Shown here: in pieces, positions 34,175 through 35,540 of the stretch
Numbering within the stretch: position 1 is the first letter of the stretch
Layout of the letters: each line of letters begins with the position of its first letter
NCBI RefSeq assembly: GCF_014926585.1
Contig: NZ_CP045422.1
Span: 558,001-622,000, forward strand
DNA: 64,000 nucleotides
Direction of reading: 5' to 3'
From: Devosia beringensis
GTDB taxonomy: Bacteria; Pseudomonadota; Alphaproteobacteria; Rhizobiales; Devosiaceae
Program-made: the position numbers and the translations under genes
Notes under the pieces: model-generated
Told to the model about the DNA's origin: nothing
Seen by the model: the letters and a program-made list of their open reading frames with translations, nothing else
Databases searched by the model: none

Positions 34175-34196
34175 GGCCCCCACCTAGCCTCCCCCT
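34175..34196. repeat. Left half of a 45-bp palindrome interrupted by the IS
   Basis: These 22 bases are the exact reverse complement of 35414-35435. Joined without the insertion they form a 45-bp palindrome with one central base (35413). The palindrome is part of the copy B repeat element that continues to 35540. Confidence 0.85.
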
Positions 34197-34214
34197 GAGC
34201 AACCGTGTTTGCGG

Positions 34215-35156
34215 TCAAGCTGTGTTGGTGTGCCAGGGGGTGTTGTTGGCAAGGACGGCATTGGCTGTCGTGATGAGTTTGCGCATGGCGGCGACGATGG
34301 CGAGCTTTCCCGGTTTGCCCTGGGCGCGCAGCCTTTTGTAGAAGTCGCGGATGGGCGGGTTAGCACGGATGGCCGACAGGGTGGCCATATAGAGAGCGCA
34401 GCGCACCGAGAGGCGTCCGCCGGCGATATGGGCCTGGCCGCGCATCTCACCACTATCGCGGTTGAAGGGGGCGACTCCGGCCAAGGCGGCCGCCTGCTTG
34501 TTGCCGATGCCGCCCAGCTCGGGCATTTCGGCCAGCAGCACGGCGGCCGTAGTCTGGCCGATGCCGGGGATGGTGGTGAGTAGTTCGGCCCGGCGCCGTA
34601 GCGTCGCATCGCTATCGATCTGGCGGGTAATGGCCCGATCCATCTCGCCGATCTGGCTGCTCAAGAAGCCTATATGAGCATCGATGCTGGCTTGCGCCAG
34701 CGCAGCTTCAGGGTGCTCGCGACGCTGCTTTTCCATGGCCAGCATATCCACCATCTGGCGGCGCCGGCGCACCAGATCGGCCATTTCCACGGCATTTGGA
34801 TCGTAGAGGGGGTCGGGATCTGGGTGCATCAGGTGAGCGAAGCGCAGGATCGCCGCGGCGTCAATCGCATCGGTCTTGGCCAGCAGCCCGTCGGCCCGAG
34901 CCAGATCGCGCACCCGGCGCGGGTTAATCGTGCTCAGCGCGATGCCATGCTGGCTGAGCGAGCGGGCCATCAGCCGCGTATAGCTGCCGGTGGCCTCACA
35001 GACCAGATGGGGCCGGGTCAGGCTGGAGATCTTTTGCACCAACCGAGCCATGCCAGCCGGATTATTGGACACGCGCAACCTGCTCGAGCCGGTGATGGCC
35101 AGATCCAGGTGCTTCTTGGAGACGTCGACACCAACATAGTCTGGGGAAAAAATCAT
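34215..35156 (-). CDS. IS110-family transposase (DEDD/serine recombinase)
   Basis: 313-residue recombinase. The RuvC-like N-terminal domain has the DEDD residues Asp11 (VGVDVSKKHLDL), Glu54 (VCEATGSY), Asp96 and Asp99 (KTDAIDAAA). The C-terminal transposase-20 domain has TTIPGIGQTTAAVLLAEMPELGGIGNKQAAALAGVAPFNRDSGEMRG and GGRLSVRCALYMATLSAIR, where Ser250 is the likely nucleophile. All catalytic residues and the full length are present, so it may be active. Start at MIFSPDYVG; the earlier frame belongs to the leader RNA region. Confidence 0.93.
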   Translation of the reverse strand: MIFSPDYVGVDVSKKHLDLAITGSSRLRVSNNPAGMARLVQKISSLTRPHLVCEATGSYTRLMARSLSQHGIALSTINPRRVRDLARADGLLAKTDAIDAAAILRFAHLMHPDPDPLYDPNAVEMADLVRRRRQMVDMLAMEKQRREHPEAALAQASIDAHIGFLSSQIGEMDRAITRQIDSDATLRRRAELLTTIPGIGQTTAAVLLAEMPELGGIGNKQAAALAGVAPFNRDSGEMRGQAHIAGGRLSVRCALYMATLSAIRANPPIRDFYKRLRAQGKPGKLAIVAAMRKLITTANAVLANNTPWHTNTA

Positions 35157-35400
35157 GATCGCTCTGCCTTGTATGCGGGCATGTCGCCCAACCAACCGTT
35201 CGAGACAGTCAAGATGGGCCGGACGCGTCTGCTCAGGGGCGAGCTTGCTGGCTCTTGGGGGACACACGCTATCCAGCCCGGGAGCCCGGTAAACCCAAAG
35301 CTCCCAGGCCGATCATCGCCAATCACGGCCTCCAAGCAAACATACAAGGGGGAGGAACCGCACAGTGGATTTGGCGAGATCTTGCCTCCACCCCCGATCT
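35157..35400 (-). ncRNA. Candidate bridge RNA region of the IS110 element
   Basis: Known IS110-group elements express a structured guide RNA from this leader. Here the minus strand has GGGAGC and GCTCCC stems around 35280-35310 and other short stems. CCTCCCCCT at 35355-35347 is identical to the target half-site next to the insertion, and GCCCCTGAGC near 35236 resembles its centre. The RNA boundaries are not determined; the call rests on position and these matches. Confidence 0.4.
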
Positions 35401-35413
35401 GTCCCTCCCCCTC

Positions 35414-35540
35414 AGGGGGAGGCTAGGTGGGGGCCCCTTCAGGGGCTTGAGAGCGACCGAAGGCAAATCGCTCCGGTGGAGCGATTTGAGCGATCAAGGC
35501 CATGAGAGCTGCGCTCGAATGGCCGGTCAGGTGGGGGTTG
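35414..35540. repeat. Right half of the palindrome and dispersed repeat copy B, forming the 3' end of mce
   Basis: Positions 35414-35435 mirror 34175-34196. From 35441 the sequence follows copy A (26837-26939) closely, including the AAATCGCTCC/GGAGCGATTT dyad with only a few changed bases. The right end carries the last codons and the stop of mce. Confidence 0.8.

What the first reader, a model, noticed from the sequence alone, without database searches (positions are those of the whole stretch)
34175..35435. IS110 element inserted at the exact dyad of a perfect 45-bp palindrome, with a guide-like match in its leader
The 22 bases left of the element (34175-34196) are the exact reverse complement of 35414-35435, with only base 35413 between them in the empty site. 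The transposase has all DEDD residues and Ser250, and a long leader lies before it, as in IS110-group elements that use a bridge RNA. The leader repeats CCTCCCCCT (minus strand 35355-35347), the target half-site. IS110 elements in REP-like palindromes are known; this one offers a readable guide and target. The match is short and low in complexity.
Basis: partly seen in the sequence, partly recalled or inferred. Interest (0 to 1): 0.7.

Follow-up and report, generated by a model that had tools for sequence, protein, structure and literature searches.

The report
RNA-guided insertion element in REP hairpins
This is a 1.15-kb mobile DNA element of the IS110 family with 11 copies in its genome, each splitting the middle of the same short repeated palindrome; its leader matches a model of IS110 guide RNAs built from relatives and likely steers the element there by base-pairing, as in the known element IS621, so it is a clear new example of a known mechanism.

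Summary
The 22-bp arms and the IS110 recombinase are as described, but the element's end was misread. Eleven copies in the same genome put the IS at 34200-35348 (1149 bp with one core); 35349-35412 is host DNA. The empty site is a REPIN-like pair of inverted REPs, and the IS splits the 19-bp hairpin CCTCCCCCT-G-AGGGGGAGG of one REP. The "45-bp palindrome" joins the outer ends of the two REPs; the "guide-like" CCTCCCCCT is the target's own left half. The real guides lie further in. A covariance model from 28 relatives (window clade left out) finds the leader at 35291-35164 minus (63.2 bits, E 1e-14, only hit in the window). Right target guide: 8/8. Left target guide: 6/9, weak. Donor guides: 8/9 and 8/8. 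Over 44 related elements guides fit their own targets far better than shuffled ones (z 14.4 left; 12.8 right, 30 elements; 0 of 50,000 permutations each). A sigma70-like promoter with a 17-bp spacer would form at the circle junction. Nine insertions fit CT-core REPs and two TT-core REPs, although TT-core REPs dominate among free exact ones (20:5; Fisher p 0.0008). Verdict: an IS621-type IS110 element, a new member of a known kind.

The parts
34175..34199 (.). Host REP, right-target side: outer tail 34175-34187, hairpin arm CCTCCCCCT 34188-34196, loop base 34197, core copy AG 34198-34199 (CT on the minus strand)
   Evidence: flank comparison of 11 copies; empty site
34200..35348 (-). IS110 element, 1149 bp with one core dinucleotide (35347-35348)
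   Evidence: identity limits of 11 genomic copies
34213..34218 (-). TTGACC, predicted -35 box in the right end of the circle-junction promoter
34198..34206 (-). Left donor plus core, ACGGTTG-CT
   Evidence: element end
34215..35156 (-). IS110 DEDD recombinase, 313 aa
   Evidence: related to ISCro4 (9t56, 141.8 bits) and IS621 (8wt6, 139.1 bits)
35164..35291 (-). Bridge-RNA-like region (target-binding and donor-binding loops)
   Evidence: covariance model R1, 63.2 bits, E 1e-14
35280..35333 (-). Two predicted 5' hairpins (35306-35333 and 35280-35305)
   Evidence: predicted fold; coordinates
35256..35264 (-). Left target guide, UGUCCCC-CA; 6/9 to CCTCCCC-CT
   Evidence: register; scored
35241..35254 (-). 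Inner hairpin of the target loop
35232..35239 (-). Right target guide, CCCCUGAG; 8/8 to CT-CAGGGG
35191..35199 (-). Left donor guide, ACGGUUG-GU; 8/9 to the element's right end
   Evidence: sequence
35177..35189 (-). Donor-loop inner hairpin
35168..35175 (-). Right donor guide, CAUACAAG; 8/8 to CT-TGTATG
   Evidence: sequence
35339..35344 (-). TATGTT, predicted -10 box in the left end; 17-bp spacer to the -35 box after circle closure
35341..35348 (-). Core plus right donor, CT-TGTATG
35349..35355 (.). Host REP, left-target side (CCTCCCC on the minus strand)
35356..35403 (.). Host linker between the two REPs (variable between copies)
35404..35435 (.). Second, unoccupied inverted REP of the same unit; top-scoring guide match in the window

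Best explanation
The element at 34200-35348 is an IS110-family insertion sequence that splits the central hairpin of one REP in a two-REP repeat, and its leader is predicted to act as an IS621-type bridge RNA that would pair one loop with the REP and the other with the element's own joined ends. Shown by sequence: ends, 11 copies in the same hairpin, model match of the leader, guide matches. Inferred: the IS likely excises as a circle; the joined ends likely make a sigma70-type promoter that transcribes the leader; the recombinase then likely exchanges strands at a CT dinucleotide. The right target guide CCCCUGAG, which pairs with CT-CAGGGG, probably sets the position, and the C-rich left target guide adds weaker specificity. 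Because the REP loop comes in a one-base (CT-CAGGGG) and a two-base (TT-CAGGGG) form, the element lands mostly in the first, which has the CT core, and occasionally in the second.
For: 11 of 11 copies at the same dyad with different linkers and flanks, so separate insertions. Model R1 from 28 relatives without the window clade: 63.2 bits, E 1e-14, the only hit up to E 10 in 64 kb. Structure of those relatives: 19 of 21 pairs with compensatory changes; covariation score 0.547 against 0.192 in shuffles, 0 of 500 as high. Fixed-register guide test: left target 6.70/9 own against 4.32 shuffled (44 elements, z 14.4), right target 6.43/8 against 3.77 (30 elements, z 12.8), 0 of 50,000 permutations each; free-scan version 0 of 20,000 each, wrong-strand controls flat. 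Window right target guide 8/8 (others' mean 3.97). The two target guides together rank one site first among 22,716 window 15-mers with T at the core's second base: the unoccupied REP beside the IS. Junction promoter 9 of 12 consensus letters, 17-bp spacer, 0 of 200 shuffles as good; 25 of 31 elements have their best site at that same place. Recombinase related to IS621 and ISCro4. Free against occupied REPs by core form: Fisher p 0.0008.
Against: The window's own left target guide is weak: 6/9, one of its two core letters mismatched, 5 of 43 other elements' targets score as well on it, and in the free scan it does no better than others' targets (6 against 6.12). The minimum-energy fold gives the target loop but not the donor loop, and 8 of 200 shuffles fold as well. 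No pre-insertion sequence from a sister genome: the CT or TT class of occupied sites is read from the left flank only. No Rfam family reached its gathering score. No expression or excision data.
Confidence: 0.9

Rival explanations
1. One reading: the IS ends at 35412, the empty site is a perfect 45-bp palindrome and CCTCCCCCT at 35355-35347 is the guide.
For: The two 22-bp arms are exact reverse complements.
Against: The 11 copies share no sequence alignment outside the REPs beyond TGTATG; the stretch up to 35412 varies between copies and unoccupied repeats of the same layout exist. CCTCCCCCT lies outside the element.
Confidence: 0.02
2. The recombinase itself recognises the REP hairpin or cruciform, and the leader plays no part in choosing the target.
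For: All 11 targets are hairpins; the left target guide is weak.
Against: Guides of 44 related elements track targets of many different sequences. The right target guide fits 8/8. Within the REPs the CT-core form is preferred, which a shape reader would not need.
Confidence: 0.05
3. The repeat and the IS move together as one unit, so that the 11 copies reflect spread of an occupied repeat rather than 11 insertions.
For: Every copy is in the same kind of repeat; two copies lie about 1.8 kb apart.
Against: Linkers and outer flanks differ between the 11 copies, and both core forms occur. No Y1 (RAYT-type) transposase was found in the genome.
Confidence: 0.03

Closest known systems
IS621 (E. coli, IS110 family, bridge RNA; PMC11208160 and PMC11208158)
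   Same: DEDD plus serine recombinase (139.1 bits); leader in the left end with target and donor loops; CT core; right donor beginning TGTAT (read from passages); junction promoter with -35 in the right end and -10 in the left; insertion in REP elements.
   Different: Different REP and guides; the target guide is C-rich; right target match of 8 letters with the core against IS621's shorter pairing; left guide carries a core mismatch; TT-core insertions seen naturally.
ISRm19 (Sinorhizobium meliloti, IS110; PMC1525189)
   Same: IS110 element in an alphaproteobacterium with 4 of 4 copies in REPs (table passage).
   Different: No guide was described in that 2006 paper's passages that I saw; I did not compare its sequence.
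ISPa11, ISPpu9, ISPpu10 (Pseudomonas REP-targeting IS110/IS1111; PMC1525189, PMC11187229)
   Same: Insertion into REPs; seekRNA-guided targeting for IS1111 types such as ISPa11.
   Different: IS1111-type elements carry the non-coding region downstream of the gene and subterminal inverted repeats; here the guide region is upstream.
REPIN (PMC3116915, search listing only)
   Same: Two inverted REPs with a linker, many copies.
   Different: No Y1 (RAYT-type) transposase gene found in this genome.

Membership tests
IS110 family, IS621-type | DEDD RuvC-like domain plus Tnp domain with catalytic serine | tested here: met
   Pfam domains; D11, E54, D96, D99, S235; aligned with ISCro4, related to IS621
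IS110 family, IS621-type | No long terminal inverted repeats; CT core at both ends | tested here: met
   AG on the plus strand at 34198-34199 and 35347-35348; core repeat only. Inverted repeats were not searched with a dedicated tool
IS110 family, IS621-type | Left-end non-coding RNA with two guide loops | tested here: met
   Covariance model hit at E 1e-14; as DNA only, transcription not tested
IS110 family, IS621-type | Target guides match left and right target | tested here: inconclusive
   Right 8/8; left 6/9 and not distinctive alone
IS110 family, IS621-type | Donor guides match the element's joined ends | tested here: met
   ACGGUUG-GU 8/9 and CAUACAAG 8/8; no permutation test was run for the donor guides
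[quoted passage not shown]
   Predicted from sequence only
IS110 family, IS621-type | Circular intermediate and RNA-dependent recombination | not testable with these tools
   needs PCR and assay
IS1111 type | Non-coding guide region downstream of the gene | tested here: not met
   Only hit of the bridge model is upstream; the right end holds 15 bp between stop codon and core
REPIN | Two inverted REPs at fixed spacing, repeated in the genome | tested here: met
   9 of the 15 stretches printed show both hairpins; 20 + 5 exact free hairpins
REPIN | Partner RAYT (Y1) transposase in the genome | tested here: not met
   PF01797: no match in the genome

The most novel reading that the evidence does not exclude
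The run of five Cs in the left target guide lets one bridge RNA slide by one base and so read two loop forms of the same REP: one register fits CCTCCCC-CT-CAGGGG, the other fits CCTCCCCC-TT-CAGGGG, while the right guide fixes the cut. With a left guide whose core letters match neither form fully, the element would be a natural bridge RNA that gave up strict left-side pairing to cover a whole REP family, with the CT core deciding the 9:2 outcome.
Probability: 0.25. Interest if true: 0.55.

Novelty: new member of a known kind. Interest (0 to 1): 0.45.

Why it matters
It gives a bridge RNA, its guides, 11 natural insertions and 25 exact free target hairpins in one complete chromosome. That makes a question about IS110 elements testable from a genome: how strongly the core dinucleotide and each guide limit target choice in nature. 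It also shows how comparing sister copies corrects element ends that look convincing in a single copy.

Tried and rejected
Orthologous empty site: 75 genus genomes searched with the flanking gene, 30 loci read (L159 is the window's own); of the 29 others, 3 keep the same neighbour gene (L160, L161, L167) and none has the repeat. Rfam: nothing near a gathering score. Plasmids: no match. Phage records: 33, all under 60% identity. Free-scan guide test: shows the family signal but not the window's left guide. MAFFT plus RNAalifold over 18 mixed leaders gave little, so anchored segments were used instead. In one search the left end of L114 was picked wrongly; it was corrected by hand for and is still wrong. 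Of 110 loci, 42 were dropped for lack of a recognised left end or too short a flank, and the other 68 were thinned to 44. One search scored 44 of the 47 model matches (the three CC-core elements were left out; it includes L048, which the thinning had removed); one of the 48 sources (L087) did not match the model. A looser, by-eye REP count gave Fisher p 0.0003; the exact-match count is the one quoted.

Full report
What is there. The recombinase gene at 34215-35156 minus carries both IS110 Pfam domains and is related to the solved ISCro4 and IS621 proteins (141.8 and 139.1 bits). D11, E54, D96, D99 and S235 are present.

Where the element ends. The genome (one contig, 4.05 Mb) holds ten full-length copies and one copy in two reading frames, plus three distant IS110 genes at 31% identity. 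Laid side by side in gene orientation, the copies agree from TGTATGTTTGC inward and up to GGTTGCT; everything outside differs, except that all left flanks end in CCTCCCCCT or CCTCCCCCTT and all right flanks begin CAGGGGGAGG. The element is therefore 34200-35348. Four copies (L007-L010) carry a 21-bp tandem duplication at the gene's end.

The empty site. Taking out the element leaves a tail, the hairpin CCTCCCCCT-G-AGGGGGAGG, a 48-bp linker, and a second hairpin and tail in inverted order. Unoccupied units with the same layout occur elsewhere; 9 of the 15 stretches printed show both hairpins. This is a REPIN-like arrangement. No sister-species site carries the repeat at this place: of 29 loci from other genus genomes, 3 keep the neighbour gene and none has the REP pair.

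The leader as a bridge RNA. Segments from 28 relatives, without the window's closest relatives, were aligned. Their consensus has a long stem with an inner hairpin and a second hairpin; 19 of 21 pairs show compensatory changes, 87.2% of cells pair against 67.8% in shuffles, and sliding the partners by one column drops this to 44% or less. The model built from them hits the window once, at 35291-35164 minus, over its whole length, 63.2 bits, E 1e-14. It also matches 47 of 48 related loci given to it, 28 of which had built it. The window leader's own minimum-energy fold shows the target loop with its inner hairpin but not the donor loop, and 8 of 200 shuffles fold as well, so structure rests on the model, not on the single fold.

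Do the guides fit. By the published scheme (PMC11208160 passages and its section on covariation, PMC11208158 passages), the left guide repeats the left target's top strand and the right guide is the reverse complement of the right target, both with the core. Scored at the model's register, allowing two left positions and three right, 44 elements give 6.70/9 for their own left target against 4.32 when targets are permuted, and 30 give 6.43/8 for the right target against 3.77; none of 50,000 permutations reaches either value, and 41 of 44 and 29 of 30 rows favour their own target. A free scan without any register gave 7.07 against 6.02 and 6.73 against 5.67, 0 of 20,000; wrong-strand versions were flat, 1536 and 2123 of 5000 permutations reaching them. 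The method thus works in this clade.

The window's element itself. Right target guide CCCCUGAG, 8/8 to CT-CAGGGG; only one other right target of 29 scores 8, and it is the same sequence. Left target guide UGUCCCC-CA, 6/9 to CCTCCCC-CT; 5 of 43 other left targets do as well, and the free scan shows no preference at all, so this guide is weak evidence on its own. Together the target guides score 14 of 17 on the REP, and in both strands of the window just one of 22,716 candidate sites reaches that: the unoccupied REP beside the element. Donor guides: ACGGUUG-GU to the right end ACGGTTG-CT, and CAUACAAG to CT-TGTATG; these were not tested by permutation.

Promoter at the closed circle. Joining right and left ends puts TTGACC 17 bases before TATGTT (9 of 12 consensus letters; 0 of 200 shuffles as good). 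In 25 of 31 elements the best-scoring pair is at exactly this place, one of them (L114) with a wrongly picked left end; 16 of 31 are better than 95% of their shuffles. IS621 makes its promoter the same way.

Core choice in nature. Every exact free hairpin reads outward as CCTCCCCCTTCAGGGGGAGG (20 sites, TT before CAGGGG) or CCTCCCCCTCAGGGGGAGG (5 sites, CT before CAGGGG). Nine of the 11 insertions have the left flank expected from the CT form and two (L006, L012) that from the TT form. Nine of 14 CT-form and two of 22 TT-form hairpins are thus occupied, p 0.0008. The IS621 papers report CT as preferred, TT as possible, and a nearly fixed T at the second place (passages). That this reading needs no pre-insertion sequence is its weakness: the class is inferred from flank length.

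Known or new. REP targeting by IS110 elements is in print: IS621, ISPa11, ISPpu9, ISPpu10 and, in an alphaproteobacterium, ISRm19 with 4 of 4 copies (PMC1525189 passages; PMC11187229 passages). My searches for IS110 with REP or palindrome terms, for bridge RNA with IS621 and for REPIN with Devosia showed no paper on this element in their listings; IS databases such as ISfinder could not be searched. The host is probably in the Devosia family: a relative in the same family (L112) shares its element with a contig titled Devosia sp. (L031); the family name is recalled.

Noticed in passing
L113, L119, L121, L123, L125; L101-L103, L105, L106; L107; L116: A subgroup of related IS110 elements in four hosts seems to have a CC core instead of CT: ends read CC-TGTG and ACAGTTG-CC-GG, the right target guide ends in GG and the right donor guide reads CACAGG. 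PMC11208158 calls T at the second core place almost invariant. Fits vary: L102's left target is 6/9, and L107's left donor found no clear guide by scan. A stricter search of 297 order genomes (E up to 1e-90) found only G116.
   Followed up: partly
window 35440-35540: About 100 bp beside the repeat is a copy of another intergenic repeat found across the genus (many hits at about 80-94% identity to this part of the query); a further copy lies beside a REP at G000:C1:584826 (L202).
   Followed up: no
G000 (whole genome): REP pairs are present but no Y1 (RAYT-type) transposase, PF01797, was found.
   Followed up: no
L114 (G037): A different IS110 lineage (39% identical) is inserted at the foot of a similar REP, flanks ACCTAGC-CT and CT-CCCCCT, with matching guides.
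   Followed up: partly
L111, L118, L120, L122, L124 (G087): The nearest multi-copy relative (72-75% identity) sits in a related hairpin, CCTTCTCCC-CT and CT-CAGGGGAGAAGG or close variants.
   Followed up: partly
G000:C1:3546284-3547223 (L011, L012): One copy's recombinase gene is split into two overlapping reading frames.
   Followed up: no
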